Shown here: piece after piece, positions 13,209 to 55,283 of the stretch | How positions within the stretch are numbered: the stretch's first letter is position 1 | How the letters are laid out: the number at the start of each line of letters is the position of its first letter | NCBI GenBank assembly: GCA_031213475.1 | Contig: JARUPZ010000003.1 | Span: 11,069,127-11,133,126, forward strand | DNA: 64,000 bases | Source: Nereocystis luetkeana | Lineage: Eukaryota > Sar > Phaeophyceae > Laminariales > Laminariaceae | Direction of reading: 5' to 3' | Position numbers and translations under genes: made by a program | Notes under the pieces: generated by a model | Databases searched by the model: none | Told to the model about the DNA's origin: nothing | Seen by the model: the letters and a program-made list of their open reading frames with translations, nothing else

Positions 13209-15467
13209 GTAGCATTGACGGTGCAGGCAAGGGGTCGATCGGGAGGTGTGCTCTCTAGCCTCTCGTCCAGGCCGGTGTGCGCGCTACATCTATTGGTGCA
13301 TTATTTGTACCGTGCCAGGGTGGAGAGCATGTCGCGTGTTGGGGTTAGGGGAGGTAGGGAGGGAGCGTGTCGGGTATTGGGGCAGTCATCGTACAGTGTT
13401 CCTTTTAGTCCAGGCTGTTGTGCTTAGCGTACCGTACATGCGTTAACTACACCGTGCCGGGAGGGAACGTTGTCTGTCATGTCTGGAGACCATTTGAGGC
13501 CCCTCGCCCCTTTTTTGCGATGCTGCTGTTGGAGGCTGGCGCTGCTTGTTTGTCAAGCAGACGCCGTGCGTGCCACATGGGAGCATCGTATCACACCCGG
13601 AACGTATAGGCTCGGTTAAAGTAAACTCCTCCTGGCTGGTGTTAGCAGCAGTGCAGCAGCAGCTGTTGTTTACGCGTTGCACCGTGCCGGACTAATCTCC
13701 TGGCTGGTGTGCGCAGCAGTACAGCTGTGGTTGTACTTGTAGGACGCTTCATTCACCGGACCGGGACTGAGCTTGTTGGGGACTGCCTTTCAACCCCTCC
13801 CCCCACCCCCCTCCCCTGTTCCCCCCACCCCCGGCTCCCCTGCTCCGTTATGCTGTTTGTTGTTGTAGAAATGACTTTGGGGGTGTAGGAAAAGCCTCCT
13901 GCTTCGTGAGAGCTGCATGCATGAAATAGAGCACTACCTCATCAATATGGGGTGGGAAGCCGCGATGTTCGTTGTCGTCTGTGTTCCCGTATTACACGCT
14001 ACCTGGTAGACTACACTCCCACGTATTTCGAAGCTGGTTCTCTCGACAATGGGGAAGGTGCAAACGCCGAGCGATTCTTCTATGGAAATATCTCGATGGG
14101 CCACCATTTTTTGCCCCCCGTGCCTAGAAGAAACTCGGCTTGGAAATTCGTCCTAGGGTGTGTATGTTATCTTGATTGTAGTATACGGTATCTGACGGTG
14201 GGCATAGAGAATAGCGTTTTGAAGTTTGTTTGTGGTTGCTGCAATTCTTGTTGCATCTTGGTCAACTAGTTGTTGCCTTTTGCTCGAAGTATTTGCATCT
14301 TATTGTATATTTTGCTTTCTGCATTTTTTCGGTGTGTTGTTTACGTAGTAGTCGTGCGTTTGCTTTTTGCATCGTGCGTAGATGATACACAGCGCGTATA
14401 GTACAGGGTATTGGGTTTTATAATATTTTTGGCTTTTATGTTTTTGTGTTTTTGCAGAACTTTGCTTGTTTTTTGTGGGTGTTCTGTTTGTGTAGATGGA
14501 TGATACAGATATACCTGGTAGCGCGTAGGAAACTGTGTACCAGGTATGTACTTATGACATCAGGCATATTTCTGTGCTGTATGCTTAGCTGTGCTCGCCG
14601 CCCTGCCATAACCGCGCCCCGGTCGGCTTAACGGAGCAGCACTGGCGCGCACACCAGCAGCAAGCAGCGCTGCCTGGAGTTATTTTGGGGGGGCGTTATG
14701 CATATTTCTCTATTTTGGGGGGCATATCAATCGCTTAAGGCCGGTGCAGGGCGAGCGATGGTGTCGGGTCCGTTGGTGGGCGAGTGGGCGAGTGCAGGCG
14801 GGGGGGCGGAGGTAGGACGAGGAATCGTCGAGGGAGGCGGAGGGAGGAAGGGCGAGGGACGAGGAGCGGTTGGGAGTTTTGAAAAATGGTTGCCTACCTA
14901 TCTATATGTGTGTACTAGGTATCATATAGTTCGAAGTATGCGAGTACCTCTTGTGATTGCTCTTGGGGGGAGAATAGAGAGCTTTTGCCGGCTGCGGGGG
15001 AACTGTATGTGATGCATGTGGTGTATCAGGTGTATGTGATTTGTATGGTCTGGTGTACAATAGGCCGAAGGTGGAGATACTACAATCGTAGTTCTTACTG
15101 TGCAGACACACACACGTGCCGAACTGTTTGCGGCGGTTCGGTAAATAAGCGGAACGATGAAATAATGGATATTGATATTGAGGAGGAAAACATGGCGAGG
15201 AATCGACAATTATTGATGTATGATACCACGTCTTGAGATCAGTCTACTTGAGTATATCGTCGGGGTCATCAACATCACCACGAAAAACCTGTTAGCATCA
15301 CTATGGTGGGAATCAATGATCGTCGTCATCAACAATTGAATTAATGCCATTGTCGCCGCCTATCTATTTGTCACGTGCCTAACGTTTGGAGCATTCAGTC
15401 GCGCACTGGCGATTGTAGTGTTCGATGCGGTTTGTACATTCTTGGTATTTCTTGCAGAAGTAGATGG
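13209..15467. other. no recognised gene; C-rich run and repeated CACCGTGCCGG, unit 1
   Basis: CACCGTGCCGG-like pieces with nearby CTCCTGGCTGGTGT occur several times between 13310 and 13710. A strongly C-rich run lies at about 13788-13850. A 105-codon plus-strand frame at 13952-14269 is present in all three units, but its differences between units are mainly amino-acid-changing, so selection on it is not supported. The rest has no assignable content. Confidence 0.5.
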
Positions 15468-15556
15468 AAGCTTCCATGGAAGCGTAGTCTACTTCCTTCC
15501 ATGTGTGCGGAAGCTTCCACAAGCTTCCATTTTTGAATTTCCATGGAAGCTTCCAC
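15468..15556. repeat. cluster of TTCCATGGAAGC palindromes, unit 1
   Basis: GGAAGCTTCC and TTCCATGGAA palindromes occur repeatedly in 90 bp, so several nested hairpins are possible. The cluster is conserved in units 2 and 3 and extended in unit 2. Confidence 0.75.
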
Positions 15557-16962
15557 GAGCTACGAGTACATATTTATTTCCGCTGGTTTCCGTGAACTTC
15601 CTACAGTAGAGGGCGTGTTAATGTTCTTCCCTTACATCTTTGCATCCCCTTCAACAGGGGCCGCTTTGAATCATTGCATCCCCTCCCCTTGTTCTTCTCT
15701 CCCTCCTTACGCCCCCCTCCCTGCCCCGGTTCCCTCCCCCGCCCCCGTTTCTCCCATCCCTGCGCCCCCAAGCCTGTCCGTTTATCTATTGGGGTTGTCC
15801 GCACAATTGATTTCGGAGACTGCCCACTTATCTATTCGAATTGTCGGATGACTTTGGGTGCTGTCGATAAACTAGGAAAGTCTGGGCAGTAGGGCCAGAT
15901 GGCTGTCTATTCATAGCATTTGCCCCGATAACCGAATTCAAGTCGTGTCTTATCACGCATGCAAGCATAGGCCACAGTAGACAATACCAGGTATATTGCA
16001 ATAGGAACCTATTCATAGGCAGTAGTCCTGGTGTTGTCTTTTGTCCAGGGTGTGATAAACGTTGTATCATCCAATCAGCGCGCGACTACGCTGATTCATA
16101 ACAGGGGCATGTGATCATCAGACAGACGGCCACGATGACATTGATCCAATTGGCAATTGACGATTGGCGATATTGATGATCATTGATGACCATCATATTG
16201 ATGCTACCAGGTTATTTAAGGTGGTATTGATGGCCACAACGCTATACTTGAGTATGCCTGGTATCATATCATATATCGATTGATGGATTTTCCTTAGAAA
16301 CCGATTGTAAAAGGATCAACTCCTCATATCATTCCCCTCGTTGTTCATTCATTATCCCGCGTAGTGTTCCTAATCCTCGAATTGTACTAAATCGTCGTGG
16401 ACAGTTGGACGTGACTCACTCTATCTACTCCAGCAGTGATAACTGCGGAAGTATCTCCTACGTACTGTAGCCTATCATACACCAGATCAAATACGCCAGA
16501 AACACCACCACATACGTTACATACACAACATGACAGCCTGCCCAACGTCCGTGACAGCCCCCTACTCTTCCCCCCAAGGTAAACAAAGAGGTGCTTGTAT
16601 GATACGTAGTACACACGTACAGCTTGCCCAAGGTCCGTAACACCCCCCTCTCTCCCCCACAAGGTAAACCGAAGAGGTGCTCGTATACCAGGGGCGTATG
16701 ATACGGCAGTACGCTTACAAATAGGTCACACTCAATTTCTAACCGCTAGTCGCCCTGTGCTTTTCTTACGTGTGCTGCACTCCGCCGCCAATCCAAGAAA
16801 GCAACAAACGAAACAGTACAGGAGAGTTATTTCCCCTCTGCAGTAATCACAAAAAAAGAAACACGACCGGCGAATAATATCCTTTCGAATCCAGCATCAA
16901 CAAAAAAGTCTATCCATCCTTTTTTCTTTTTTCACCCATCAATCTATCAATCCACCCGCTGT
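15557..16962. other. no recognised gene; C-rich tract at 15690-15775, unit 1
   Basis: The tract has runs of C on the plus strand (G-run rich on the minus strand). Around 16120-16200 there are short overlapping palindromes on the theme GATGATCATTGATGACCATC. TACCAGG heptamer at 15985-15993 (see findings). Confidence 0.5.
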
Positions 16963-17042
16963 CTCAAAAGCGCAGAAACCGGCCAGTCGGCGAGATGGCT
17001 TAGATAGGCACCTCGCCGACTGACCGTTTCTGCACTTTTGAG
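16963..17042. repeat. 80-bp hairpin element, unit 1
   Basis: CTCAAAAGCGCAGAAAC..CAGTCGGCGAG is matched by CTCGCCGACTG..TTTCTGCACTTTTGAG after a 17-nt loop. The stem is about 31 bp with three differences. Outside it, ATCAATC and GATTGAT stretches extend the inverted symmetry to about 16934-17067. The hairpin is conserved in all three units with a few changes, including T-rich substitutions in unit 2. Confidence 0.8.
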
Positions 17043-17712
17043 ATATGGCTGCATTGATTGATTGATGGAGGATGTTCTCTATGTTGGCAATTCCTGCGGG
17101 CTCTTCGCTTATAGGTCTAAGTTCGGTAAGGTGTGCACGTGGCGTGGGTAATACCTCTACCTTCCACACACCTCAAAAAAAGGGCCACATCCTCTCCTCA
17201 TTCCAAAACAATGAAAACAAAAGTGTGCCGGGAGATAAGCCATTTTTATAGCTCTTTCTCCCAGACGAAAACAAAAACATACTGGTATGTATATATCATC
17301 TATAGTGCCTCTAGAGGGTACCCACTGAGAAGGTCCGCGCTATGCTCAGAGACCATCGAAGATGCTTCAGCAAAACGGGTGTATTACACACAGTCCATCA
17401 CCTTTCTACTCTTGCATCCCATCGGTTGGAAACCAAAAATACAGCATGGGGGGCGAGCAACTCCCTCTCCAAAAAACAAAAAGAAAACATTCCTTGTCTC
17501 TCATTGAGTGCAGAAATGACTGCTGCGTGTGGTCGCGGCTGCGGTGGAGTCTTCGACATAGAAGGCGCTTTCTAGCTTCTATGGCCCGAGGCGCTTCCGC
17601 TGCTCCGGATAGTCCAGGTGGTTCATCATCAGGAGGAGACGGTGGTCGCTTGTGCAATTGCCAGTATCGTCCTAGGCCTCCAGGACGTCGGCGAGGCGCG
17701 TATAGCTCGAGC
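17043..17712. other. no recognised gene, unit 1
   Basis: Overlapping plus and minus frames around 17342-17700 are open in all three units, but most unit-to-unit differences change amino acids in each frame, which argues against coding. Confidence 0.45.
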
Positions 17713-17768
17713 GTGGGGTGGGGTGGGGTGAGGTGGGTTAGGGTTAGGGTTAGGGTGAGGTTAGGGTA
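17713..17768 (+). repeat. GGGGT repeats and short telomere-like run, unit 1
   Basis: GGTGGGGTGGGGTGAGG runs into three TTAGGG units, then TGAGGTTAGGG. Unit 2 has two TTAGGG units here and unit 3 has one interrupted by TTATGG. It is an interstitial TTAGGG-like run and too short to be a telomere. Confidence 0.8.
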
Positions 17769-18890
17769 CGGTGTTGTTGTTTATACCAAGTGTATACCAG
17801 GTATGATACTCGTACGGTGTCCCTGGACCACAGCTGTGCTCTTGTACATACATACATACTGCAGGGTCCACAGTAGTATGGCGTTTTCGTAAATATTGCC
17901 CCTTGAAAACGCCGACGCAATAACGCAAGTTCAAGACCTTGACATTGATGATAGTGGTCACAAGTGGGCATTGGAAGGACGTGTAGACAAACAACATGAA
18001 AAAGAGCGAAATGCAACAAAATCAAAGAAAACAAAAAAGCCTATTCGCGAAACAAGGTCAGTTATGTAAAGTATGCACCTCTACAGCAACTATGTTCTAT
18101 TTGCCGGCCCAATAACAGTTATCCTCATGTAAGGGAGGTGCGTCCTCACTGTTGCTGCTGCTGCTTGTGCTGCTTGAACAAATACGGGCGCTGGGTGTCA
18201 AGCCAATACATAACAGTCATGGGGTGTGATGGAATGATCACATACAGAGGGCGTGTCTTAACTCCCACCGAAGAGCATGGGAACGGGCGGAACGGAACGA
18301 GGCTGTTCGTGGTCATTCGTTCCGTTCCTACCTACAAAAACGTGTTTGGGACCATGCAGAATCCTGGGCCTCGCCAGCTGAATCGGCACGAACGGTATAT
18401 TTTGCATATACCAAAGCAAATTGGTGTCAACATCCATCTTCGGATCTTCGGTGGTGTCCATCTACATCAAATAATCTGCTATTTGTTCCCGTTCGGTCGG
18501 GCCGTTCCGTCCTCCCAAACAAGAAAAAGGGGTCCAACACTTCTTCTTCCTCTTCCTAGATACCAGGTATACTGTTTTACTCGGGCTGCACTGAATCTAT
18601 TCGTTTCCGACAACCAATCAACACCAATTCATGCGGCAAATAATAATAATCCATTCGGTTCGTTCAATGCTCTCTGGGGGGGGTTAACACCCCGAGTACC
18701 ATACTTCGTCTTTCGGCACGGCGATCACATGGGTGATCCACAAGTCTTTTAAGTACGCGCGTTTATGTACACAACGTGACGGAAAGGCATTCAAACACTG
18801 GGAGATGTTGGCGGCACAAGCAGACAGGCAGGAAGCCAGACAGACAGAAAGGAAGGCAGCAGGCCAACAGATAGTCACGGCAAATAATAT
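17769..18890. other. unassigned segment with frames on both strands, unit 1
   Basis: A plus frame of 204 codons (18138-18752) overlaps a minus frame of 67 codons (18258-18461). The minus frame has a more protein-like composition and in unit 2 extends to 86 codons (38498-38758). I recognise neither. The plus frame is broken in unit 2 by loss of the 7-base TACCAGG and of a 94-bp segment near 18080-18175. Confidence 0.3.
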
Positions 18891-19312
18891 AGGCAAGGCA
18901 AGGCAGATACGGTGAGCGAGCAAGCACGGCAAGCGAGGCAAGCAAGGCAAGCAAGGCAAGCGAGACAAGCAAGGCAAAGCAAGGCAAGCAAGGCAAGCAA
19001 GGCAAGCAAGGCAAGCAAGGCAAGCAAGACAAGCAAGGCGAGCAAGGCAAGCAAGGCAAGCGAGGCAAGCGAGGCAAGCAAGGCAAGCAAGGCAAGCAAG
19101 GCAAGCAAGGCAAGCAAGGCAAGCAAGGCAAGCAAGGCAAGGCAAGCAAGGCAGGCAAGGCAAGACAAGCGAGGCAAGCAAGGCAAGCAAGGCAAGCAAG
19201 GCAAGCAAGGCAAGCGAGGCAAGCAAGGCAAGCAAGGCAAGCAAGACAAGCGAGGCAGGCAAGGCAAGCCAGGCAAGCCAGGCAAGCAAGGCAAGCAAGG
19301 CAAAGCAAGGAG
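18891..19312. repeat. 9-bp minisatellite (CAAGGCAAG)n, unit 1
   Basis: About 400 bp of CAAGGCAAG with variants (CGAGGCAAG, CAAGACAAG, CAGGCAAGG). The period of nine keeps all frames open, giving Lys-Ala-Ser, Arg-Gln-Ala and Leu-Ala-Cys type repeats that are not genes. It lies immediately downstream of the splice donor of the VPS15-like exon, so it would sit in that gene's first intron. The array is about 735 bp in unit 2 and 690 bp in unit 3. Confidence 0.9.
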
Positions 19313-19380
19313 GCTACGAGTACCAACAAGGAGGTCTCGAGGTCTCACAACAAAGACGATGCTGCACTTTCTCCACTCAC

Positions 19381-19520
19381 TGGTAGCTCTTGATGAATTC
19401 CCCGTTCGCCAGCTTTTTAACGTAGACCACTTTGGACAGGTCGTGCTGAAGTATCACGCGAGCATCGGCGGCCGATGGTTGCGCTCCGCCAGCGTAGGTG
19501 TGGGACGAGGCATTGCCCAT
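19381..19520 (-). CDS. VPS15: VPS15/PIK3R4-like first coding exon, intact (unit 1)
   Basis: The minus-strand reading starts at the ATG at 19520 in the context ACCATGG and encodes 46 codons plus two bases. It ends at CCA followed by GTGAGT, a good splice donor at 19380. The peptide begins MGNASS, an N-myristoylation-type start, and continues to [23 protein letters not shown]15 (the pseudokinase regulatory subunit of the class III PI3-kinase VPS34, on endosomal and autophagic membranes) starts with MGN and has a segment of the type HDL-x-x-x-Y-x-K-x-LGxxRFLK at the same distance from the N-terminus. The match is from memory of the family and is moderate. No further VPS15 exon (kinase-like, HEAT or WD40 part) was recognised downstream on the minus strand, so this may be a captured gene fragment. 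The upstream frame is open for about 40 codons without an ATG. Confidence 0.55.
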
Positions 19521-20322
19521 GGTGTACGCTGCTGCTGTCTTCTCATGATAGGACTTTCGCTCGACGACGGAGGGATGCTGTGTGGAATGATGCTCCCCGA
19601 TCTCAGCACCTGCTCCTAGATCGATGATTTTTCTCCAACAACGTCTTCATCATCTCCCACCCATGGGAATTGCGAGGCGTGTCAGCCATCTAGAGAGATA
19701 CCACAGCAGCAACTAGCAGCACACACGCTGAAAAACAGGTGCCTTTGCAACGTTTGGTTTCCATTTTCCGCCCGACGGAATAAAGCCTCCATATCTATAC
19801 GTGTAAAAAACAATTTTGGATCCTGTGTCCAGTGCACACACTCAGCACACAGAACATCACAGCGCACGTGGGGGTGGGGGCGGGGACGGGGGCGGGGGGC
19901 CGCGGCGGTGGCGCCCACCCCCGAAGGCAGGTGGCGTGAAGGGTCAGAGAGTGTGGAAGGGATTGGAGCAAGGCCCTGCCGAAGCCCCCACCGAAGCCGC
20001 CGTTAGGTGCGGAGTCCTGCAGTCGCCACAACAATGGAGACTACGGCTATTCATAGGTGGGTGATTTATTGTTTATCTAGGGACACGCGGTGGGGGGCGG
20101 GGGCGGGGCATGGTGCAGGTAGGGCTTCTGCCCTTTGCCTGACTCTCAGGTGGGTACGTAGGGCGGATACTTTTCTCGTTCGGGTGTGGGTTTGCTTGCG
20201 ACAATCACGTTGGTTTGGACCGCCTCGCACATGTCGTTCAGAACACGGTCTACCACAGGTGCCACTCCGTATACTTGGTGTACAGCATTACTACGGCTGT
20301 TTGTTAACCCTGGAATAGGACT
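19521..20322. other. presumed 5' region of the VPS15-like exon, unit 1
   Basis: If the exon is expressed, its promoter and leader lie here on the minus strand. I see no convincing TATA box. A G-rich run at 19868-19905 (GGGGGTGGGGGCGGGG type) and another at 20090-20110 could form quadruplexes. No other gene was recognised. Confidence 0.4.
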
Positions 20323-20385
20323 GCAGTCCCGTTTTGGGGACAAATTACTCAGCATTTGAATGGTTTGTCCCCCAAACGGGACTGC
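20323..20385. repeat. 63-bp foldback, unit 1
   Basis: Arms of 22 nt, GCAGTCCCGTTTTGGGGAC and its inverted partner ending GGGACTGC, differ at one position and enclose a 19-nt loop. The copies in units 2 and 3 have the same length. Confidence 0.85.
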
Positions 20386-20639
20386 ACTCCTAAACAGGTT
20401 GGGACTGCTGTACCAACAGCAGTAGATCCTCTACGTACTCCTCTACTGCTGCTGTTGTTGCAGATCCTATTCCGGCACGTAGCCTGCCTCTCCCCTAAGA
20501 TATCTCGTTTTGTTCCCTCTCTCTGTTTTGCCACAAGTCCCAGCTAAGTTCTCTGCGTATTTGGGTTCTCTGGCTTGACTGTTATGTCCTCTGCAAAATG
20601 CGATGTGCCTCTGGTACAATTTACTTGTTCGGCTTGCCT
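20386..20639. other. no recognised gene, unit 1
   Basis: CTG/CAG-rich stretch with TACTGCTG runs; nothing assignable. Confidence 0.45.
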
Positions 20640-20960
20640 TGGCTGTGCTTTCTGTTTTCGTACCAAGCACGTTCGCCTTTCATTTGCGATGATTCCGCTG
20701 CGCTCGCTCACGAGGAAGAATGGAACGAGCGCAAAATATCGTCCAAACGATCGGGAGCAAAGAGGCGACTTGCAAATGCCAAGAGCTCCATGTTCCATCC
20801 AGGAAAACATCCAGGACGCCGTATGCGTGTACGTACAGACATACTAGTACCTGGTACTTATTTTGGGATGCCCGAAAGAAAGAAAGCACAGAACGGCACA
20901 GGCACGCACAACACTGGAAAAAAATGGAAATCGAATGGAAACGAAATATTGGGTATTAAG
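20640..20960. repeat. left part of an R1 copy interrupted by MITEs, unit 1
   Basis: ATTCCGCTGCGCTCGCTCA, AAATATCGTCCAAAC, GGCGACTTGCAAATGCC and AGAGCTCCATG match the R1 copy at 5281-5400 in order. After ACGAAATATTGGGTATTAAG the sequence switches to the MITE. R1 resumes beyond the second MITE at 22521 (GGAACAATCTCCGTGCCTTC, compare GAACAATCCCTGTTCCCTC near 5513), then is lost again at about 22556. Confidence 0.75.
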
Positions 20961-20963
20961 GCT

Positions 20964-21734: not shown

Positions 21735-21750
21735 CGGTCTAAGGCTGCTT

Positions 21751-22525: not shown

Positions 22526-22559
22526 AATCTCCGTGCCTTCTCATGTAATTGTCTGGGCT

Positions 22560-30113: not shown

Positions 30114-32341
30114 GTAGCGTTGACGGTGCAGGCAAGGGGTCGATCGGGAGGTGTGCTCTCTAGCCTCTCGTCCAGGCCGGTGTGCGCGCTGCATCTACTG
30201 GTGCATTATTTGTACCGTGCCAGGGTGGAGAGCATGTCGCGTGTTGGGGTTTGGGGAGGTAGGGAGGGAGCGTGTCGGGTATTGGGGCAGTCATCGTACA
30301 GTGTTCCTTTTAGTCCAGGCTGTTGTGCTTAGCGTACCGTACATGCGTTAACTACACCGTGCCGGGAGGGAACGTTGTCTGTCATGTCTGGGGACCATTT
30401 GAGCCCCCCCGCCCCTTTTTTGCGATGCTGCTGTTGGAGGCTGGCGCTGCTTGTTTGTTAAGCAGACGCCGTGCGTGCCACATGGGAGCATCGTATCACA
30501 CCCGGAACGTATAGGCTCGGTTAAAGTAAACTCCTCCTGGCTGGTGTTAGCAGCAGTGCAGCAGCAGCTGTTGTATACGCGTTGCACCGTGCCGGACTAA
30601 TCTCCTGGCTGGTGTGCGCAGCAGTACAGCTGTGGTTGTACTTGTAGGACGCTTCATTCACCGGACCGGGACTGAGCTTGTTGGGGACTGCCTTTCAACC
30701 CCTTCCCCCCCACCCCCTCCCCTGTTCCCCCCACCCCCGGCTCCCCTGCTCCGTTATGCTGTTTGTTGTTGTAGAAATGACTTTGGGGGTGTAGGAAAAG
30801 CCTCCTGCTTCGGGAGAGCTGCATGCATGAAATAGAGCACTACCCCATCAATATGGGGTGGGAAGCCGCGATGTTCGTTGTCGTCTGTGTTCCCGTATTA
30901 CACGCTACCTGGTAGACTACACTCCCACGTATTTCGAAGCTGGTTCTCTCGACAATGGGGAAGGTGCAAACGCCGAGCGATTCTTGTATGGAAATATCTC
31001 GATGGGCCACCATTTTTTGCCCCCCTTGCCTAGAAGAAACTCGGCTTGGAAATTCGTCCTAGGGTGTGTATGTTATCTTGATTGTAGTATACGGTATCTG
31101 ACGGTGGGCATAGAGAATAGCGGTTTGAAGTTTGTTTGTGGTTGCTGCAATTCTTGTTGCATCTTGGTCAACTAGTTGTTGCCTTTTGCTCGAAGTATTC
31201 GCATCTTATTGTATATTTTGCTTTCTGCATTTTTTCGGTGTGTTGTTTACGTAGTAGTCGTGCGTTTGCTTTTTGCATCGTGCGTAGATGATACACAGCG
31301 CGTATAGTACAGGGTATTGGGTTTTATAATATTTTTGGCTTTTGTGTTTTTGCAGAAGTTTGCTTGTTTTTTGTGGGTGTTCTGTTTGTGTAGATGGATG
31401 ATACAGATATACCTGGTAGCGCGTAGTAAACAGTGTCTGTACTTACGACATCAGGCATGTCTCTGTGCTGTATGCTTAGCTGTGCTCGCCCCGCGCCCCG
31501 GTCGGCTTAACGGAGCAGCGCTGGCGTGCACACCAGCAGCAAGCAGCGCTGCCTGGAGTTGTATTGGGGGGGGCATTATGCATATTTCTCTATTTTGGGG
31601 GACATATCAATCGCTTAAGGCCGGTGCAGGGCGAGCGATGGTGTCGGGTCCGTTGGTGGGCGAGTGGGCGAGTGCAGGCGGGGGGGCGGAGGTAGGACAA
31701 GGAACCGTCGAGTGAGGTGGAGGGAGGAGAGGCGAGGGACGAGGAGCGGTTGGGAGTTTTGAAAAATGGTTGCCTACCTATCTATATGTGTGTACTAGGT
31801 ATCATATAGTTCGAAGTATGCGAGTAGCTCTTGTGATTGCTCTTGGGGGGAGAATAGAGAGCTTTTGCCGGCTGCGGGGGAACTGTATGTGATGCATGTG
31901 GTGTATCAGGTGTATGTGATTTGTATGGTCTGGTGTACAATAGGCCGAAGGTGGAGATACTACAATCGTAGTTCTTACTGCTGTGCAGACACACACACGT
32001 GCCGAACTGTTTGCGGCGGTTCGGTAAATAAGCGGAACGATGAAATAATGGATATTGATATTGAGGAGGAAAACATGGCGAGGAATCGACAATTGATGCA
32101 TGATACCACGTCTTGAGATCAGTCGACTTGAGTATATCGTTGGGGTCATCAACATCACCACGAAAAAACTGTTAGCATCACTATGGTGGGAATCAATGAT
32201 CGTCGTCATCAACAATTGAATCAATGCCATTGTCGCCGCCTGTCTATTTGTCACGTGCCTAACGTTTGGAGCATTCAGTCGCGCACTGGCGATTGTAGTG
32301 TTCGATGCGGTTTGTACATTCTTGGTATTTCTTGCAGAAGT
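30114..32341. other. gene-less stretch, unit 2
   Basis: Equivalent of 13209-15467, with a C-rich run at about 30701-30747. Lacks the TACCAGG heptamer at about 31434 that units 1 and 3 have. Confidence 0.45.
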
Positions 32342-35154: not shown

Positions 35155-35418
35155 CTACAGCACAAGCTCAGTTGCCAAATGCGAGCCGTATTCATCTGCA
35201 TGATCTCCAGGTAGCACGAATTTCCTGGGTTGGATCTGAACTATACAGATCTTGCACAGGACGTGACAACGGTGGAGGGCAGAGGATTCGTAGCATCTAC
35301 AGCAGATGATCCAGTACTGCAGTAGATCGCGATCCGACCGACGTGTGAAACATTGTAACTGGTAACTGGTACCTGGTATACGTCGAGGGTACACGATGGA
35401 AGAGATAAACGATACCAC
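35155..35418 (-). CDS. unassigned 87-codon frame with Cys-rich stretch, doubtful
   Basis: In the middle of the peptide, cysteines are spaced as CC-x-C, then C-x3-C-x2-C, preceded by a Trp and followed by a hydrophilic segment. This resembles a small zinc-binding module but fits no family that I can name. The frame has no copy elsewhere in the window to test for selection. Confidence 0.15.
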   Translation of the reverse strand: MVSFISSIVYPRRIPGTSYQLQCFTRRSDRDLLQYWIICCRCYESSALHRCHVLCKICIVQIQPRKFVLPGDHADEYGSHLATELVL

Positions 35419-35661: not shown

Positions 35662-35931
35662 TCAGGTCTTGTCGACGTGGATTTTGCTGGGAGGAGGGAA
35701 GAGGGAAGGCAGGTGCTGTGCTTCGAAGATGATCGAGCCTGAATGCGTTTGGTTGTCGAGGAGGAAGGGTTGGGTATGATTTGTTCGTTCCTGGTTAGTG
35801 TGGGCTTCTTCGCTGAAATCAATATTGTTTATTGGCCCTCCATCCGCGCCCCCCCTGCTCATCGCCACCTTGATGCCCTTCAACGTTGTATCGCTTGACT
35901 CCGAAGGGTTGTCATATACCTGGTACCACAT
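35662..35931 (-). CDS. unassigned 89-codon frame, doubtful
   Basis: The predicted peptide has ordinary composition (Asn, Thr, Ser, His and Glu-rich, no low-complexity runs), unlike most frames here. No signature is recognised. It lies at the right end of the unit-2-only segment and could be an exon fragment or chance. Confidence 0.15.
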   Translation of the reverse strand: MWYQVYDNPSESSDTTLKGIKVAMSRGGADGGPINNIDFSEEAHTNQERTNHTQPFLLDNQTHSGSIIFEAQHLPSLFPPPSKIHVDKT

Positions 35932-35933
35932 AA

Positions 35934-37293
35934 TACTGTAGAGGGTGTGTTAATGTTGTTCTTCCCTTACATCTTTGCATGATTCCCTTCAACAGGGGCC
36001 GCTTTGCATCATGGCATCCCCTCCCCTTGTTATTATCTCCCTCCTTACGCCCCCCTCCCTGCCCCGGTTCCCTCCCCCGCCCCCGTTTCTCCCATCCCTG
36101 CGCCCCCAAGCCTGCCCGTTTATCTATTGGGGTTGTCCGCACAATTGATTTCGGAGACTGCCCACTTATCTATTCGAACTGTCGGATGACTTTGGGAGCT
36201 GTCGATAAATTAGAAAAGTCTGGGCAGTAGGGCCAGATGGCTGTCTATTCATAGCATTTTCCCCGATAATAGAGTTCAAGTCGTGTCTTATCACGCATGC
36301 AAGCATAGGCCACAGTAAACAGGCTATTGCAATAGGAACCTATTCATAGGCAGTAGTCCTGGTGTTGTCTTTTGTCCAGGGTGTGATACGCGTTTTATCA
36401 TCCCCTCAGCGCGCGACTACGCTGATTCGTAAGAGGGGCATATGATTATCAGACAGACGGCCACGATGACATTGATCCAATTGGCAATTGACGATTGGCG
36501 ACATTGATGATCATTGATTACCATCATACTGATGCTACCAGGTTATTTAAGATGGTATTGATGGCCACAACGCTATACTTGAGTATGCCTGGTATCATAT
36601 CATCTATCGATTGATGGATTCTCCTTAGAAACCGATTGTAAAAGGATCAACTCCTCATATCATTCCCCTCGTTGTTCATTCATTAACTAGCGTCGTGTTC
36701 CTAATCCTCGAATTGTACTAAATCGTGGTGGGCAGTTGAACGTGACTCATTCTATCTACTCCAGCAGTGAGAACTACGTTAGTATCTCCTACGTACTGTA
36801 GCCTATCATACACCAGATCAGATACGCCAGAAACACCACCACATACGTTACATACACAACATGACAGCCTGCCCAACGCCCGTGACAGCCCCCTACTCTT
36901 CCCCCCAAGGTAAACAAAGAGATGCTTGTATGATACGTAGTACACACATATAGCTTGCCCAAGGTCCTTAACACCCCCCTCTCTCCCCCACAAGGTAAAC
37001 CGAAGAGGTGCTCGTATACCAGGGGCGTATGATACGGCAGTACGCATACAAATAGGTCACACTCAAAATCTAACCGCTAGTCGCCCTGTGCTTTTCTTAC
37101 GTGTGCTGCACTCCGCCGCCAATCCAAGAAAGCAACAAACGAAACAGTACAGGAGAGTTATTTCCCCTCTGCAGTAATCACAAAAAAAGAAACACGACCG
37201 GCGAATAATATGCTTTCGAATCCAGCATCAACAAAAAAGTCCATCCATCCTTTTTTCTTTTTTCACCCATCAATCTATCAATCCACCCGCTGT
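35934..37293. other. gene-less stretch with C-rich tract at 36020-36110, unit 2
   Basis: Equivalent of 15601-16962. Lacks the TACCAGG heptamer seen at 15985 in unit 1. Confidence 0.5.
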
Positions 37294-38098: not shown

Positions 38099-39121
38099 GC
38101 GGTGTTGTTGTTTATACCAAGTATATACCAGGTATGATACTCGTACGGTGTCCCTGGACCACAGCTGTGCTCTTGCACATACACACATACTGCTGGGTCT
38201 ACAGTAGTATGGCGTTTTCGTAAATATTCTCCCCTGAAAACGCCGACTCAATAACGCAAGTTCAAGACCTTGACATTGATGATAGTGGTCGCAAGTGGGC
38301 ATTGGAAGGACGTGTGGACAAACAACATAAAAAAGAGCGAAATGCAACAAAATCAAAGAAAACAAAAAAGCCTATTCGCGAAACAAGGCCAGTTATGTAA
38401 AGTATGCTGCTGCTTGAACAAATACGGGTGCTGGGTGTCAAGCCAATACATAACAGTCATGGGGTGTGATGGAATGACCACATACAGAGGGCGTGTCTTA
38501 ACTCCCACCGAAGAGCATGGGAACGGGCGGAACGGAACGAGGCTGTTCGTGGTCATTCGTTCCGTTCCTACCTACAAAAACGTGTTTGGGACCATGCAGA
38601 ATCCTGGGCCTCGCCAGCTGAATCGGCACGAACGGTATATTTTGCACATACCAAAGCAAATTGGTGTCCACATCCATCTTCGGATCTTCGGTGGTGTCCA
38701 TCTGCTTCAAATAATCTGCTATTTGTTCCTGTTCGGTCGGGCCGTTCGGTCCTCCCAAACAAGAAAAAGGGGTGCAACACTTCTTCTTCCTCTTCCTAGA
38801 TATACTGTTTTACTCGGGCTGCACTGAGTCTATTCGTTTCCGACAGCCAATCAACACCAATTCATGCGGCAAATAATATTCCATTCGGTTCGTTCCAATG
38901 CTCTGTGGGGGGGGTTGAGACACACCCATGAGTACCATACTTCGTCTTTCGGCATGGCGATCACATGGGTGATCCACAAGTCTTTAGTACGCGCGTTTGT
39001 GTACACAACGTGACGGAACGGCCTTCAAACTAGGGGAGATGTTGGCGGCACAAGCAGACAGGCAGGCAGCCAGACAGACAGAAAGGAAGGCAGCAGGCCA
39101 ACAGATAATCACGGCAAATAA
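38099..39121. other. unassigned segment, unit 2
   Basis: Equivalent of 17769-18890 lacking about 94 bp. The minus frame at 38498-38758 (86 codons) is the longest version of the unassigned frame seen in unit 1. Confidence 0.35.
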
Positions 39122-46830: not shown

Positions 46831-47572
46831 TGGGGGAAAAAGTATAAAAACCGATGAGGGGAAAAAAAAGGAAAAAAATGGCAAACCAACGAAAAAAACA
46901 AATGAACAAACAACAACAAAAAAGGAAAAAGGGGAAACAGGAACGCAATTCGGGGGAAGAAGGGACGCGCTCGACGGGGAAAAGAAGAGATGGTAATAAA
47001 CAAACGAAACAAACAAAAAATGAGGGGAAAAATAGTGATGAAAAATAGGGGCAACAGGTACGCGATTCGGGGGGAGAACGGACGCGCTCGACGGGATGGG
47101 TAGTCGCGATGCCCCCCCTTCCTCCGTGTGCATTGTGAGAGTGATTTAGTCGATCGGCTAAGGTGGTTTGCTGTTGCTGATGTTGTTGTTGGTGCAGTTA
47201 CACCCCAGTCCGCCACACCCCGGCTGTCGCTATTTCGGGAGCGGCGCTAGGAGAGAGGTGGCTGGCTGGCTGGCTGGGTGCCTGCTCTCGCCAGATGTTT
47301 AGGCGAGGGCAGTGGCGATGGCGATGTCGGTAGGCACACCAGGCAGGCAAGGCACCTTTTAGAGACGAACGCGACGGCCCCGGTAATGCACCGGGCTCGC
47401 GTCCTCTGCGCTTTCAGAGGGATCATGGGGGTTTATTGACTGATGCATGGATGGTTGGATCGATGGATTGCATGTTGGATGGGTGAATGGGTGGATGGGT
47501 GGGGGGATGGATTGAATGATTGATTGATAGGTGGATGGAAGAGGTATGGATTGATTGATTGATTGATTGATC
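46831..47572. repeat. purine-rich tract and mixed microsatellites, unit 3
   Basis: As 10451-11195. Confidence 0.68.
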
Positions 47573-49389
47573 CATTACTGTTTTGTGTTGGGGGAGACAT
47601 TGCTCGCCGGTCCTGCTTCTGTTAGGGTACCGTTTTTCATTTTTGGGAGGAAGGATGAGACTCGCCCGTGGTGTTTACCTATCTGGGAAGGAAGGCTGAG
47701 GTGCCACCTCGTATGCGTATGTACGCCTTTTGTCTGCCTGACCCCGCCAGATGTTTAGGCGAGGGTCGTGGTGATGACGATATCGGTAGGCACACCAGGC
47801 AGGAAAGACGAGCCCTAACGCTTTTGGCCTCAATTCACCGATATTTTTCTGCGCTCAGTGAGATATGGGGCATCCATGCTTTGTTTCTTGCTTTTTGAAG
47901 AGGAAATGGCGTTCGCCCCCGTCGCGCTCTTTTGTTTGGGGGGGGAGGGGGTGACAGAACGGCAAATACTACAGCAGACGCTTCCACGGTTACTGCTGTG
48001 CATCTTTCGGAGGCGTATTTGTACCTTGGATTTATCGTCATCCCTATTTGTCTTCACTTGGTACCCGCTTTTATTGAGACTTTGAATACTGGTAGGTGCT
48101 ATTACTACAGTAGTTATATAGCAGCGGGATGGATCTGGCTTTTAACTTTGTTTGTGTTCGCGGAGGAAAAGTGATTCGCTCACGTCGTCTTCAGTGTTTT
48201 GCATGTTGCTTTTTATCCAGAGAGGTTACATACGATTCTCGCCTGTATAGTACGATGTATGTAGCGCTTCGGATTTGGAAACGACGTTGAGTTTTGGAGG
48301 TGATAGATGTCGAGGAGGGAATTTCCCGGCCGCAGTGCTGTCTTTTTTTGAACCGATAGGAGGGAAGGGATAGGCGACGAATTCGTGTACGTACACACTT
48401 TTTGAAGAGACAACCTCGACGGTATCTGGGTATCGCGCTGACCCTCTTGTTAGTAGTGGCTATGATCCTCTGGTAATACATATATTATGGGTAGTTTTTT
48501 GTTTTGTTTCTCGTTTTGAAGAGAGAGCCAAAAGCCTCCTCGCCCGTGCAGTTTTGGTTTGGTTCGGGATACGAGAGGAGAGGGTCGGAGAGGAGAGGAG
48601 ATGCTATGGCTCTGGCACGTGGTGTTTGCTTGGTTGGGGAGGGAAGGTAGATAGAGGTGTCCCCCACACCACGTGCACTCCTTGCCAAGCCCAGGCCGAC
48701 AAGTGAAGGGACAAGCCGGAACGTTTGGTTGGTTATCCCGCCGACTGACCGCGGGCTGTCTGCACTGTCTCGGGGGTGAATTGATGCATGGATGGGTGCA
48801 AGGAGGCGCGTGTTTTCGTTGGATTGGGAAGGGACTTACTCGCCCTTCATCTTTGTGAGGGCCATTGGATTGGAGAGGAAGAACAGCTCTCGTTGTGGTT
48901 TTTTGGGGGGGGGGATATTTTGGACTGGAGGGGGACTGACTCGCCCGTCATTTTGTTTATGTTAAAGGTTTAGATAGCCATGGCCAGTAGGGTATGTACT
49001 GGTGCGTGTTGTTTTAGAGATGGAAAGGCCTCTGTGGATATGGCTCGCCCGCCATGGTTTGTATTTGGGGGGATTTATATATTAGGTGGAGGTAGAAGGT
49101 AGAGGGCAGTACAGCTAAGGTATTATACTTTTGGCCATCATCAAGGTTCTAGTGAGCAGCACTATTATCAAGTCCAGTAAGTCTAGTTGTGTCATCATGA
49201 TGTGTCGCTTTATGTAGCACAGTCGTAGTTATTAGTGTTGGTGGTATATAGTCGTAACAGTAAGAAGCCGTCGATTTCATGGGTTCATCATGTTGATTTT
49301 GAGTCCACCTGTTGGGTAATAGGAGAGGGATGGCAGTCGCGCGCCACGCTCTTTCGGGTGGATTGTTTTATAGATACGTCACGTATTGC
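47573..49389. other. gene-less stretch, unit 3
   Basis: Equivalent of 11196-12996. Confidence 0.45.
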
Positions 49390-49602
49390 ACAGGTGACCG
49401 AGACACCCCCCCCCCCTGCACAATGCAGGCGTAAACAAATCCTTGTAGAAAAGTAGAGCAATCTAGCGAACCCCACAAAGTGTCGATAACCTCTCAATTC
49501 GGTATACGACTGTTAATACTGGTGTGCTACATTGTTCGACGTCTCCACAAGGATTATTTTATGCCCACATTGTGCAGGGGGGGAGGGGTCCCAGCCACCT
49601 GT
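49390..49602. mobile_element. 212-bp foldback / MITE-like element, unit 3
   Basis: As 12997-13208. Confidence 0.7.
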
Positions 49603-51858
49603 GTAGCATTGACGGTGCAGGCAAGGGGTCGATCGGGAGGTGTGCTCTCTAGCCTCTCGTCCAGGCCGGTGTGCGCGCTACATCTATTGGTGCATTATTT
49701 GTACCGTGCCAGGGTGGAGAGCATGTCGCGTGTTGGGGTTAGGGGAGGTAGGGAGGGAGCGTGTCGGGTATTGGGGCAGTCATCGTACAGTGTTCCTTTT
49801 AGTCCAGGCTGTTGTGCTTAGCGTACCGTACATGCGTTAACTACACCGTGCCGGGAGGGAACGTTGTCTGTCATGTCTGGGGACCATTTGAGGCCCCCCG
49901 CCCCTTTTTTGCGATGCTGCTGTTGGAGGCTGGCGCTGCTTGTTTGTTAAGCAGGCGCCGTGCGTGCCACATGGGAGCATCGTATCACACCCGGAACGTA
50001 TAGGCTCGGTTAAAGTAAACTCCTCCTGGCTGGTGTTCGCAGCAGTGCAGCAGCAGCTGTTGTTTACGCGTTGCACCGTGCCGGACTAATCTCCTGGCTG
50101 GTGTGCGCAGCAGTACAGCTGTGGTTGTACTTGTAGGACGCTTCATTCACCGGACCGGGACTGAGCTTGTTGGGGACTGCCTTTCAACCCCTTCCCCCCC
50201 CCCCTCCCCTGTTCCCCCCACCCCCGGCTCCCCTGCTCCGTTATGCTGTTTGTTGTTGTAGAAATGACTTTGGGGGTGTAGGAAAAGCCTCCTGCTTCGT
50301 GAGAGCTGCATGCATGAAATAGAGCACTACCCCATCAATATGGGGTGGGAAGCCGCGATGTTCGTTGTCGTCTGTGTTCCCGTATTACACGCTACCTGGT
50401 AGACTACACCCCCACGTATTTCGAAGCTGGTTCTCTCGACAATGGGGAAGGTGCAAACGCCGAGCGATTCTTGTATGGAAATATCTCGACGGGCCACCAT
50501 TTTTTGCCCCCCTTGCCTAGAAGAAACTCGGCTTGGAAATTCGTCCTAGGGTGTGTATGTTATCTTGATTGTAGTATACGGTATCTGACGGTGGGCATAG
50601 AGAATAGCGGTTTGAAGTTTGTTTGTGGTTGCTGCAATTCTTGTTGCATCTTGGTCAACTAGTTGTTGCCTTTTGCTCGAAGTATTTGCATCTTGTTGTA
50701 TTTTTTGCTTTCTGCATTTTTTCGGTGTGTTGTTTACGTAGTAGTCGTGCGTTTGCTTTTTGCATCGTGCGTAGATGATACACAGCGCGTATAGTACAGG
50801 GTATTGGGTTTTATAATATTTTTGGCTTTTGTGTTTTTGCAGAAGTTTGCTTGTTTTTTGTGGGTGTTCTGTTTGTGTAGATGGATGATACAGATATACC
50901 TGGTAGCGCGTAGGAAACTGGGTACCAGGTATGTACTTATGACATCAGGCATATTTCGGTGCTGTATGCTTAGCTGTGCTCGCCGCCCTGCCATAACCGC
51001 GCCCCGGTCAGCTTAACGGAGCAGCACTGGCGCGCACACCAGCAGCAAGCAGCGCTGCCTGGAGTTATTTTGGGGGGGCGCTATGCATATTTCTCTATTT
51101 TGGGGGGCATATCAATCGCTTAAGGCCGGTGCAGGGCGAGCGATGGTGTCGGGTCCGTTGGTGGGCGAGTGGGCGAGTGCAGGCGGGGGGGCGGAGGTAG
51201 GACGAGGAATCGTCGAGGGAGGCGGAGGGAGGAAGGGCGAGGGACGAGGAGCGGTTGGGAGTTTTGAAAAATGGTTGCCTACCTATCTATATGTGTGTAC
51301 TAGGTATCATACAGTTCGAAGTATGCGAGTACCTCTTGTGATTGCTCTTGGGGGGAGAATAGAGAGCTTTTGCCGGCTGCGGGGGAACTGTATGTGATGC
51401 ATGTGGTGTATCAGGTGTATGTGATTTGTATGGTCTGGTGTACAATAGGCCGAAGGTGGAGATACTACAATCGTAGTTCTTACTGTGCAGACACACACAC
51501 GTGCCGAACTGTTTTGCGGCGGTTCGGTAAATAAGCGGAACGATGAAATAATGGATATTGATATTGAGGAGGAAAACATGGCGAGGAATCGACAATTAAT
51601 TGGTATATGAAATCACGTCTTGAGATCAGTCTACTTGAGTATATCGTTGGGGTCATCAACATCACCACGAAAAACCTGTTAGCATCACTATGGTGGGAAT
51701 CAATGATCGTCGTCATCAACAATTGAATCAATGCCATTGTCGCCGCCTGTCTGTTTGTCACACATGCACATGCCCAACGTTTAGAGCCTTCAGTCGCGCA
51801 CTGGCGATTGTAGTGTTCGATGCGGTTTGTACATTCTTGGTATTTGTTGCAGAAGTAG
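49603..51858. other. gene-less stretch, unit 3
   Basis: Equivalent of 13209-15467, with a C-rich run at about 50190-50232. It has the TACCAGG heptamer at about 50923. Confidence 0.45.
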
Positions 51859-51949
51859 ATGGAAGCTTCCATGGAAGCATAGTCTACTTCCTTCCATGTG
51901 TGCGGAAGCTTCCACAAGCTTCCATTTTTGAATTTCCATGGAAGCTTCC
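51859..51949. repeat. cluster of TTCCATGGAAGC palindromes, unit 3
   Basis: As 15468-15556. Confidence 0.75.
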
Positions 51950-53350
51950 ACGAGCTACGAGTACATATTTATTTCCGCTGGTTTCCGTGAACTTCCTACA
52001 GTAGAGGGCGTGTTAATGTTCTTCCCTTACATCTTTGCATCCCCTTCAACAGGGGCCGCTTTGAATCATTGCATCCCCTCCCCTTGTTCTTCTCTCCCTC
52101 CTTACGCCCCCCTCCCTGCCCCGGTTCCCTCCCCCGCCCCCGTTTCTCCCATCCCTGCGCCCCCAAGCCTGTCCGTTTATCTATTGGGGTTGTCCGCACA
52201 ATTGATTTCGGAGACTGCCCACTTATCTATTCGAATTGTCGGATAACTTTGGGTGCTGTCGATAAACTAGGAAAGTCTGGGCAGTAGGGCCAGATGGCTG
52301 TCTATTCATAGCATTTGCCCCGATAACCGAATTCAAGTCGTGTTTTATCACGCATGCAAGCATAGGCCACAGTAGACAAGATATTGCAATAGGAACCTAT
52401 TCATAGGCAGTAGTCCTGGTGTTGTCTTTTGTCCAGTTTGTGATAAACGTTGTATCATCCAATCAGCGCGCGACTACGCTGATTCATAACAGCGGCATGT
52501 GATTATCAGACAGACGGCCACGATGACATTGATCCAATTGGCAATTGACGATTGGCGATATTGATGATCATTGATGACCATCATATTGATGCTACCAGGT
52601 TATTTAAGGTGGTATTGATGGCCACAACGCTATACTTGAGTATGCCTGGTATCATATCATCTATCGATTGATGGATTTTCCTTAGAAACCGATTGTAAAA
52701 GGATCAACTCCTCATATCATTCCCCTCGTTGTTCATTCATTATCCCGCGTAGTGTTCCTAATCCTCGAATTGTACTAAATCGTCGTGGACAGTTGGACGT
52801 GACTCACTCTATCTACTCCAGCAGTGATAACTGCGGAAGTATCTCCTACGTACTGTAGCCTATCATACACCAGATCAAATACGCCAGAAACACCACCACA
52901 TACGTTACATACACAACATGACAGCCTGCCCAACGTCCGTGACAGCCCCCTACTCTTCCCCCCAAGGTAAACAAAGAGGTGCTTGTATGATACGTAGTAC
53001 ACACGTACAGCTTGCCCAAGGTCCGTAACACCCCCCTCTCTCCCCCACAAGGTAAACCGAAGAGGTGCTCGTATACCAGGGGCGTATGATACGGCAGTAC
53101 GCTTACAAATAGGTCACACTCAATTTCTAACCGCTAGTCGCCCTGTGCTTTTCTTACGTGTGCTGCACTCCGCCGCCAATCCAAGAAAGCAACAAACGAA
53201 ACAGTACAGGAGAGTTATTTCCCCTCTGCAGTAATCACAAAATCAGAAACACGACCGGCGAATAATATCCTTTCGAATCCAGCATCAACAAAAAAGTCCA
53301 TCCATCCTTTTTTCTTTTTTCACCCATCAATCTATCAATCCACCCGCTGT
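51950..53350. other. gene-less stretch with C-rich tract at 52078-52167, unit 3
   Basis: Equivalent of 15557-16962, without the heptamer at about 52380. Confidence 0.45.
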
Positions 53351-53430
53351 CTCAAAAGCGCAGAAACCGGCCAGTCGGCGAGATGGCTTAGATAGGCACC
53401 TCGCCGACTGACCGTTTCTGCACTTTTGAG
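53351..53430. repeat. 80-bp hairpin element, unit 3
   Basis: As 16963-17042. Confidence 0.8.
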
Positions 53431-54098
53431 ATATGGCTGCATTGATTGATTGATGGAGGATATTCTCTTTGTTGGCAATTCCTGCGGGCTCTTCGCTTAT
53501 AGGTCTAAGTTCGGAAAGGTGTGCGCGTGGCGTGGGTAATACCTCTACCTTCCACACACCTCAAAAAAAGGGCCACATCCTCTCCTCATTCCAAAACAAT
53601 GAAAACAAAAGTGTGCCGGGAGAGAAGCCATTATTATAGCTCTTTCTCCCAGACGAAAACAAAAACATACTGGCATGTATATATCATCTATAGTGCCTCT
53701 AGAGGGTACCCACTGAGAAGGTCCGCGCTATGCTCAGAGACCATCGAAGATGCTTCAGCAAAACGGGTGTATTACACACAGTCCATCACCTCTCTACTCT
53801 TGCATCCCATCGGTTGGAAACCAAAAATACAGCATGGGGGGCGAGCAACTCCCTCTCCAAAAAACAAAAAGAAAACATTCCGTGTCTCTCATTGAGTGCA
53901 GAAATGACTGCTGCGTGTGGTCGCGGCTGCGGTGGAGTCTTCGACGTAGAAGGCGCTTTCTAGCTTCTACGGCCAGAGGCGCTTCCGCTGCTCCGGATAG
54001 TCGAGGTGGTTCATCATCAGGAGGAGACGGTGGTCGCTTGTGCAATTGCCAGTATCGTCCGAGGCCTCCAGGACGTCGGCGAGGCGCGTATAGCTCGA

Positions 54099-54165
54099 GC
54101 GTGGGGTGGGGTGGGGTGAGGTGGGGTGGGTTAGGGTTATGGTTAGGGTGAGGTTAGGGTGCGGT
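54099..54165 (+). repeat. GGGGT repeats and telomere-like run, unit 3
   Basis: TTAGGG followed by TTATGG and TTAGGG; one base different from the unit 1 run. Confidence 0.75.
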
Positions 54166-55283
54166 GTTGTTGTTTATACCAAGTGTATACCAGGTATGAT
54201 ACTCGTACGGTGTCCCTGGACCACAGCTGTGCTCTTGTACATACATACATACTGCTGGGTCTACAGTATTATGGCGTTTTCGTAAATATCGCCCCTTGAA
54301 AACGCCGACGCAATAACGCAAGTTCAAGACCTTGACATTGATGATAGTGGTCGCAAGTGGGCATTGGAAGGACGTGTAGACAAACAACATAAAAAAAGCG
54401 AAATGCAACAAAATCAAAGAAAACAAAAAAGCCTATTCGCGAAACAAGGTCAGTTATGTAAAGTATGCACCTCTACAGCAACTATGTTCTATTTGCCGGC
54501 CCAATAACAGTTATCCTCATGTAAGGGAGGTGCGTCCTCACTGTTGCTGCTGCTGCTTGTGCTGCTTGAACAAATACGGGTGCTGGGTGTCAAGCCAATA
54601 CATAACAGTCATGGGGTGTGATGGAATGATCACATACAGAGGGCGTGTCTTAACTCCCACCGAAGAGCATGGGAACAGGCGGAACGGAACGAGGCTGTTC
54701 GTGGTCATTCGTTCCGTTCCTACCTAAAAAAACGTGTTTGGGACCATGCAGAATCCTGGGCCTCGCCAGCTGAATCGGCACGAACGGTATATTTTGCATA
54801 TACCAAAGCAAATTGGTGTCAACATCCATCTTCGGATCTTCGGTGGTGTCCATCTACATCAAATAATCTGCTATTTGTTCCCGTTCGGTCGGGCCGTTCC
54901 GTCCTCCCAAACAGAAAAAGGGGTCCAACACTTCTTCTTCCTCTTCCTAGATACCAGGTACCAGGTATACTGTTTTACTCGGGCTGCACTGAATCTATTC
55001 GTTTCCGACAACCAATCAACACCAATTCATGCGGCAAATAATAATCCATTCGGTTCGTTCCAATGCTCTCTGGGGGGGGTTAAGATACACCCCGAGTACC
55101 ATACTTCGTCTATCGGCACGGCGATCACATGGGTGATCCACAAGTCTTTAAGTACGCGCGTTTATGTACACAACGTGACGGAAAGGCATTCAAACTATGG
55201 GAGATGTTGGCTGCACAAGCAGACAGGCAGGAAGCCAGACAGACAAAAAGGAAGGCAGCAGGCCAACAGATAATCACGGCAAA
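54166..55283. other. unassigned segment, unit 3
   Basis: Equivalent of 17769-18890. It carries two tandem TACCAGG heptamers at about 54951-54967, where unit 1 has one and unit 2 none. Confidence 0.35.

What the first reader, a model, noticed from the sequence alone, without database searches (positions are those of the whole stretch)
14538..54970. A TACCAGG heptamer is inserted or absent at identical sites in different units, like a footprint at TA
Three aligned places differ by exactly 7 bases. (1) Unit 2 CTAGATATACTG at about 38800, unit 1 CTAGATACCAGGTATACTG at 18557, and unit 3 with two tandem heptamers at about 54951. (2) Present in unit 1 at 15985; absent in unit 2 (about 36322) and unit 3 (about 52380). 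(3) Present in units 1 and 3 (14538, 50923); absent in unit 2 (about 31434). The result always reads TA-CC(A/T)GG-TA, a near-palindrome with TA on both sides. TACC(A/T)GGTA also occurs about ten times in the first 21 kb at unrelated places, where about 0.16 is expected by chance. Tc1/mariner elements duplicate TA and leave short footprints with an ambiguous centre, for example TAC(A/T)GTA, so these may be scars of an unseen element with CC..GG ends. The similar TAC(A/T)GTA is also frequent here, including at the edge of the unit-2-only segment. A tiny self-duplicating motif is the alternative.
Basis: partly seen in the sequence, partly recalled or inferred. Interest (0 to 1): 0.75.

Follow-up and report, generated by a model that had tools for sequence, protein, structure and literature searches.

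The report
Recurrent seven-base insertions at TA-like sites
The same tiny seven-letter DNA insert has been added again and again at separate places in this non-coding, repeated stretch, most likely as scars left by a jumping element that is not itself in the window, although a self-spreading tiny motif is not ruled out.

Summary
TACCWGGTA occurs 30 times in the window against 0.30 in shuffles; in masked, non-redundant sequence 13 times against 0.30. All three indel sites are real. Among 18 non-tandem indel blocks of 4-30 columns between the three aligned units, 3 are the heptamer, and its words alone recur in three blocks. Two further loci carry it where repeat copies nearby lack it: 2296 (firm) and 6729 (weaker). 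The gain rate from the array roughly predicts the standing density.

The footprint idea is partly supported. The TA context, odd palindrome and flank preferences (R..Y 11 of 13; adjacent TA 8 of 13) fit excision scars of a TA-specific element with a 5-nt stagger. But empty alleles read TA at only two of five loci (others GA/GC, TC, TG), and no matching inverted-repeat element was found in the window. The ambiguous centre proves nothing: one odd palindrome read in both orientations gives it.

The rival is an ultra-short invasive element, as reported in fungal mitochondria. No genome is held, so the genome-wide test was impossible.

The parts
18561..18567 (+). Site 1, u1: one heptamer TACCAGG followed by TA
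   Evidence: empty in u2, two copies in u3
38801..38802 (+). Site 1, u2: empty allele, reads TA
54952..54965 (+). Site 1, u3: two tandem heptamers
15985..15991 (+). Site 2, u1: heptamer present
36323..36324 (+). Site 2, u2: empty allele, reads GC, not TA
52380..52381 (+). Site 2, u3: empty allele, reads GA, not TA
14538..14544 (+). Site 3, u1: heptamer present
50923..50929 (+). Site 3, u3: heptamer present
31436..31437 (+). Site 3, u2: empty allele, reads TC, not TA
2296..2302 (+). Site 4 (new, outside the array): heptamer in one of four repeat copies; the other three read TA at that place (1720, 1995, 2575)
6729..6735 (+). Site 5 (new, outside the array, weaker): heptamer in one repeat copy; two diverged paralogous copies (6844, 6887) are empty and read TG
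   Evidence: (71% over 49 bases, 77% over 47), sequence
1909..1922 (+). 14-bp insert TACCAGG-TGCCTCG before TA, read by eye as two heptamers, the second decayed
   Evidence: sequence, read by eye against the copy at about 2504
16686..16696 (+). 11-bp insert beginning TACCAGG in one copy of an 86-bp tandem repeat (read by eye)
35356..35378 (+). Three tandem heptamers, two TAACTGG and one TACCTGG, then TA; in the u2-only segment
7381..7389 (+). TACCTGGTA, present in u1-u4
7989..7997 (+). TACCAGGTA, present in u1-u4
14000..14008 (+). TACCTGGTA, present in u1-u3
14512..14520 (+). TACCTGGTA, present in u1-u3
17795..17803 (+). TACCAGGTA, present in u1-u3, beside a decayed-looking copy (TACCAAGTG in u1, TACCAAGTA in u2) 11 bp upstream
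20848..20856 (+). TACCTGGTA, present in u1-u3
35917..35925 (+). TACCTGGTA in the u2-only segment

Best explanation
Shown: a 7-bp unit, TACCAGG or its reverse TACCTGG, is present or absent at homologous places, and at 2296 it is clearly a gain; the filled allele reads TACCWGGTA, can hold two or three units, and near-matches show that it decays. Inferred: the gains are excision scars of a TA-specific cut-and-paste DNA transposon whose ends begin CC(A/T)GG. It would enter a TA, duplicate it, and leave with a 5-nt staggered cut whose self-complementary ends rejoin, so that TA becomes TA-CCWGG-TA. A few copies that move often would leave many scars and no element in a 64-kb window.
For: Enrichment 13 against 0.30 in non-redundant sequence. 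The heptamer is 3 of 18 non-tandem indel blocks of 4-30 columns. At 2296, 3 of 4 repeat copies are empty and read TA, which polarises the gain. Site 1 is a clean TA to TA-CCAGG-TA change with matching near flanks. Target-like flanks: R before and Y after in 11 of 13 sites against 38% of all TAs (p 8e-4), an adjacent TA in 8 of 13 against 14% (p 1e-4), and an A/T-rich position 7 bases out (23 of 26; 0.002 of random draws reach it). A TA target in a palindromic AT context is reported for the Tc1/mariner element ZB (PMC7913693, passages), and footprints identical to the overhang for Sleeping Beauty (PMC7827188, passages). Tandem heptamers would fit re-entry at the scar's own TA. Some shortened forms are in excess: TACGTA 18 against 7.5-9.4, TACCAGTA 5 against 0.9-1.9, TACCGGTA 2 against 0.3-0.4. 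Four gains over a tree length of 0.034 predict 21 perfect motifs per 25 kb at balance (95% range 6-54); 13 are seen.
Against: Empty alleles are TA at only 2 of 5 loci; they are GA/GC at site 2, TC at site 3 and TG at 6729. At site 2 the G is shared by u2 and u3, so the change to T falls on the same short u1 branch (about 1%, worked out) as the insertion. A scan that demanded TA and at most 3 mismatches in 24 flanking bases recovered, of the five loci, only site 1 (2296 and 6729 exceed the mismatch limit). No inverted-repeat element with these ends was found in the window. Footprints in the passages I read are 0-4 bp (PMC7913693, PMC9632168), not 5, and are often varied or non-canonical (PMC3770610), whereas the three array sites all have exactly 7 bp or a multiple of it. 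Other shortened forms are not in excess: TACCTGTA 1 against 0.9-1.5, TACCTA 9 against 6.8-9.8, TACCATA 4 against 2.9-3.7.
Confidence: 0.43

Rival explanations
1. An ultra-short invasive element: the 9-base palindrome TACCWGGTA itself is the unit. It is copied into sites of the form R-NN-Y, replacing or co-converting the two central bases, by a break that is repaired with a fixed template (an existing copy or an RNA). No carrier transposon is needed.
For: Explains empty alleles that are not TA at 3 of 5 loci, where two bases are replaced by the 9-mer. Substitutions right beside an insert that go with its presence are reported for the yeast mitochondrial GC42 element and read there as a co-conversion tract (PMC4478555, passages). 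Integral numbers of heptamers (1, 2, 3) and no element in the window. Precedent for size: MUSE1, 11 bp, more than 100 copies in Podospora mtDNA, seen only as cited in PMC7218506.
Against: The precedents I found are in organelles; nothing in this window suggests an organelle (no tRNA, no Rfam match). The mechanism is speculative. The adjacent-TA preference and the TA at sites 18561 and 2296 are better explained by a TA-specific enzyme.
Confidence: 0.32
2. A functional motif (binding site) that selection gains and keeps.
For: Six of the nine u1 sites are present in all three full units.
Against: Selection does not by itself make exact 7-bp insertions, and the standing number fits neutral gain and decay. 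One-mismatch versions are as many as perfect ones in non-redundant sequence (13, of which about 4 are expected by chance; 13 perfect), so the motif decays.
Confidence: 0.08
3. Replication slippage or tandem duplication of the heptamer.
For: One copy against two at 18561/54952 and the triple at 35356.
Against: At the five loci where filled and empty alleles were compared, the empty flanks show no adjacent heptamer to copy.
Confidence: 0.07
4. Assembly or sequencing artefact.
For: The array is repetitive and no reads could be inspected.
Against: The motif and its presence/absence also occur outside the array (2296, 6729), and the near flanks at site 1 are otherwise the same.
Confidence: 0.03

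Closest known systems
Excision footprints of Tc1/mariner transposons (Sleeping Beauty, ZB, Ppmar2)
   Same: Short insert between duplicated TAs; TA target, AT-rich and partly palindromic context for ZB (passages of PMC7827188, PMC7913693, PMC9632168).
   Different: 5 bases between the TAs instead of the 0-4 in those passages; empty allele often not TA; no element seen.
MUSE1, the mitochondrial ultra-short element of Podospora (Koll et al. 1996 is not held; seen only as cited in PMC7218506, PMC1864894 and, without the name, PMC2670323)
   Same: A unit of about ten bases with many copies.
   Different: MUSE1 is mitochondrial and 11 bp; this one adds 7 bp, is an odd palindrome, and lies in DNA without recognisable organelle genes.
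GC42 and other GC clusters of yeast mtDNA (PMC4478555, passages)
   Same: Presence/absence polymorphism, and substitutions right beside the insert that go with its presence.
   Different: 42 bp, AG target, organelle.
Short palindromic repeats of Volvox organelles and nucleus (PMC2670323, passages)
   Same: Palindromic repeats also found in nuclear DNA.
   Different: Average about 50 nt hairpins, and held by the authors to be inert in the nucleus.

Membership tests
Tc1/mariner excision footprint | Filled allele is TA-X-TA with X taken from the transposon tip | tested here: inconclusive
   TA-CCWGG-TA found, but no tip to compare with
Tc1/mariner excision footprint | Empty (never inserted) allele is TA | tested here: not met
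   TA at 18561 and 2296, but GA/GC, TC and TG at 15985, 14538 and 6729
Tc1/mariner excision footprint | Length of X within the reported range (0-4 bases in the passages read) | tested here: not met
   5 bases; range
Tc1/mariner excision footprint | A source element with inverted ends and a DDE transposase | tested here: inconclusive
   None found in the window; the rest of the genome is not held
Ultra-short invasive element (MUSE-like) | Same short word dispersed at many unrelated places far above chance | tested here: met
   13 against 0.30
Ultra-short invasive element (MUSE-like) | Presence/absence at homologous sites | tested here: met
   Three array sites and 2296 firmly, 6729 weakly
Ultra-short invasive element (MUSE-like) | Copying of the unit from an existing copy or RNA | not testable with these tools
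   Needs an experiment or many strains

The most novel reading that the evidence does not exclude
A mobile unit of only 7-9 bp, TACCWGGTA, is spreading by itself in what looks like nuclear DNA: it replaces the two middle bases of R-NN-Y sites and re-enters its own copies. It would be the smallest self-propagating DNA known to me, with no carrier transposon.
Probability: 0.28. Interest if true: 0.9.

Novelty: new variant of a known kind. Interest (0 to 1): 0.58.

Why it matters
If these are scars, the traffic of a cut-and-paste element can be read without seeing the element, at about one perfect scar per 2 kb of non-redundant sequence here (13 in 25 kb), and a 5-nt stagger would exceed the range in the Tc1/mariner passages I read. 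If they are not scars, a 7-bp unit that multiplies in apparently nuclear DNA has no precedent in the searches I made. Either way, the balance of gain and decay gives a countable insertion clock.

Tried and rejected
Source element: TACC...GGTA pairs 40-8000 bp apart with at least 14 of 20 matching end bases gave 4 pairs, two between motif sites and two in CCTCACC-type simple repeats; a generic TA-inverted-end search (7 exact bases, 17 of 24 in all, 60-6000 bp) gave 0. Genes: no Rfam match at gathering score, no tRNA. Of five ORFs, two had a weak Pfam match below the curated cut-off (best E 0.00055, RING-like). Of 105 stop-free frames of 85 aa or more from the non-redundant part (listed), the best was E 0.0021, again RING-like. 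Other words are enriched (GTACGTAC 9 against 0.9, TATSATA 12 against 2.6, TACGAGTA 6 against 0.85), but none was seen as a recurrent indel between the units; one 4-bp TACG insertion at a TA was seen (23865). Public collections: window patterns of 20-34 bases had no match (viral contigs; genome contigs). No locus of the 125 held more than 3 TACCWGGTA, so I take them as chance. Empty-site search: 6 of 25 motif or near-motif sites hit, one of them (14512) only a shifted match to its neighbour 14538. Of 83 control TA-N5-TA sites 8 hit: the two strong ones (c14519, c15978) adjoin motif sites and the other six have E 9e-4 to 0.2. The hit of 6729 (E 1e-4) is only modestly better than the best such control (c2238, 9e-4), so that locus is weaker than the other four. 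A scan of 12 dinucleotides for flank-matched insertions gave many pairs from tandem-like repeats for every dinucleotide; for TA it showed TACCAGG only at site 1. Papers: TACCAGGTA as a whole word, 0 papers; heptanucleotide or ultrashort nuclear elements, nothing close; a search with 'brown alga', a guess at the lineage from recall, listed nothing on the point (listing only).
Full report
Setting. The window is about 50% G+C, with a tandem array of large units: u1 7296-23962, u2 23963-43657, u3 43658-60742 and the start of u4, after 7.3 kb of flank. Pairwise identity of aligned bases among u1-u3 is 97.4-98.3%. There is no Rfam match at gathering score, no tRNA and no credible protein domain in the frames scanned. 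I read it as eukaryotic non-coding DNA (inference); the organism is unknown and no genome is held.

The word. TACCWGGTA occurs 30 times against 0.30 in shuffles. Counting each array position once and masking tandem repeats, it occurs 13 times against 0.30; other Markov orders give 0.23 to 0.70. Among words of the form XY-N(1-10)-XY it ranks second, after CAGCAGCA. TACCCGGTA or its reverse is not seen there (0 against 0.22), so the centre is A or T; which of the two is only a matter of the strand read.

The indels. The three-unit alignment has 68 gap blocks; 28 are 4-30 columns wide, 10 of these are tandem-duplication-like, and 3 of the other 18 are the heptamer. Six-base words of the heptamer are the only ones that recur in three blocks. 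The only other 7-wide block is a TG/T run.

New sites. Outside the array, a repeat with four copies between about 1640 and 2640 carries the heptamer in one copy (2296); the other three read TA at that place (1720, 1995, 2575). This is a gain by parsimony. A second, more diverged repeat carries it at 6729; two paralogous stretches align with the heptamer left out (71% over 49 bases without a gap; 77% over 47 with one 1-base gap) and read TG. That support is modest: E 1e-4, against 9e-4 for the best control that does not adjoin a motif site. At 1909 a 14-bp insert reads as a fresh and a decayed heptamer, and at 16686 an 11-bp insert begins with the heptamer (by eye). At 35356 three heptamers stand in tandem.

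Empty alleles. They read TA at 18561 and 2296, but GA (u3) and GC (u2) at 15985, TC (u2) at 14538, and TG at 6729. The base before is A or G and the base after C or T in every empty allele except one of the three at 2296 (1720, which has C before), as in 11 of the 13 perfect sites. At 15985 the G is shared by u2 and u3, so the T of u1 arose on the same short branch as the insertion (about 1%, worked out). At 14538 u2 differs from u1 at three more bases within 12 of the site, so that patch may simply be older; at 15985 u3 has no other difference that near. These facts weigh against a strict TA target, but conversion from a more distant unit of the array could bring insert and neighbours together.

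Rate. Four gains (two at site 1, one each at sites 2 and 3) over 15.5 kb and a tree length of 0.034 give 0.0076 gains per base per substitution per site; this takes all array differences as gains. If each perfect 9-mer is lost by a hit at any of its nine bases, balance predicts 21 per 25 kb (95% range 6-54), and 13 are seen. One-mismatch forms number 13 in the non-redundant stretches, here not masked for tandem repeats, where about 4 are expected by chance (scaled). Steady gain and decay can therefore explain the density without selection. With a low-copy, very mobile element, no copy need fall in 64 kb, so its absence is weak evidence.

Reading. Excision scars explain the TA context, the palindrome (a self-complementary 5-nt overhang with a mismatched centre), the flank preference and the tandem forms. 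They do not explain the non-TA empty alleles, and 5 nt exceeds the 0-4 in the passages I read (PMC7913693; PMC9632168; three for Sleeping Beauty in PMC7827188; cuts two to three bases inside in PMC2170065). Non-canonical, varied footprints are reported for HSMAR2 (PMC3770610); the array sites here show only 7 bp or twice 7. A self-spreading unit explains the empty alleles and has mitochondrial precedents (PMC7218506; PMC4478555; PMC1864894; PMC2670323; passages only), but I found none active in nuclear DNA. I put the first at 0.43 and the second at 0.32.

Noticed in passing
window 23865: A 4-bp insertion TACG at a TA in u1 only, making TACGTA; u2, u3 and a paralog at about 7115 lack it. It could be a trimmed form of the same scar.
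   Followed up: partly
window 6945, 7038, 8212, 14919, 15219, 16261, 16598, 16697, 17802: TATGATAC/GTATCATA is enriched (9 against 0.88) and at 17802 directly abuts the heptamer motif.
   Followed up: no
window 14902-16622: Nested, imperfect inverted repeats (arms of 25 to 92 nt, 73-88% complementary) around 15.7 kb, where the A/T strand skew also flips.
   Followed up: no
window 32478-35933: 3,456-bp segment only in u2. It ends beside TACTGTA where u1 and u3 read TACAGTA, and holds a 75% copy of 8225-9046.
   Followed up: partly
window 7382-7472 and 22674-22764: A 91-bp dispersed repeat (91% identical) whose left edge falls one base inside the motif at 7381 and inside its one-mismatch form at 22673.
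   Followed up: no
window 22576-22639: A GGGTCGGGTC...GACCCGACCC hairpin that is 10 bp longer in u2 and u3 than in u1.
   Followed up: no
window 17735-17767: Short TTAGGG-like run inside each of the three full units, of slightly different length or sequence per unit.
   Followed up: no
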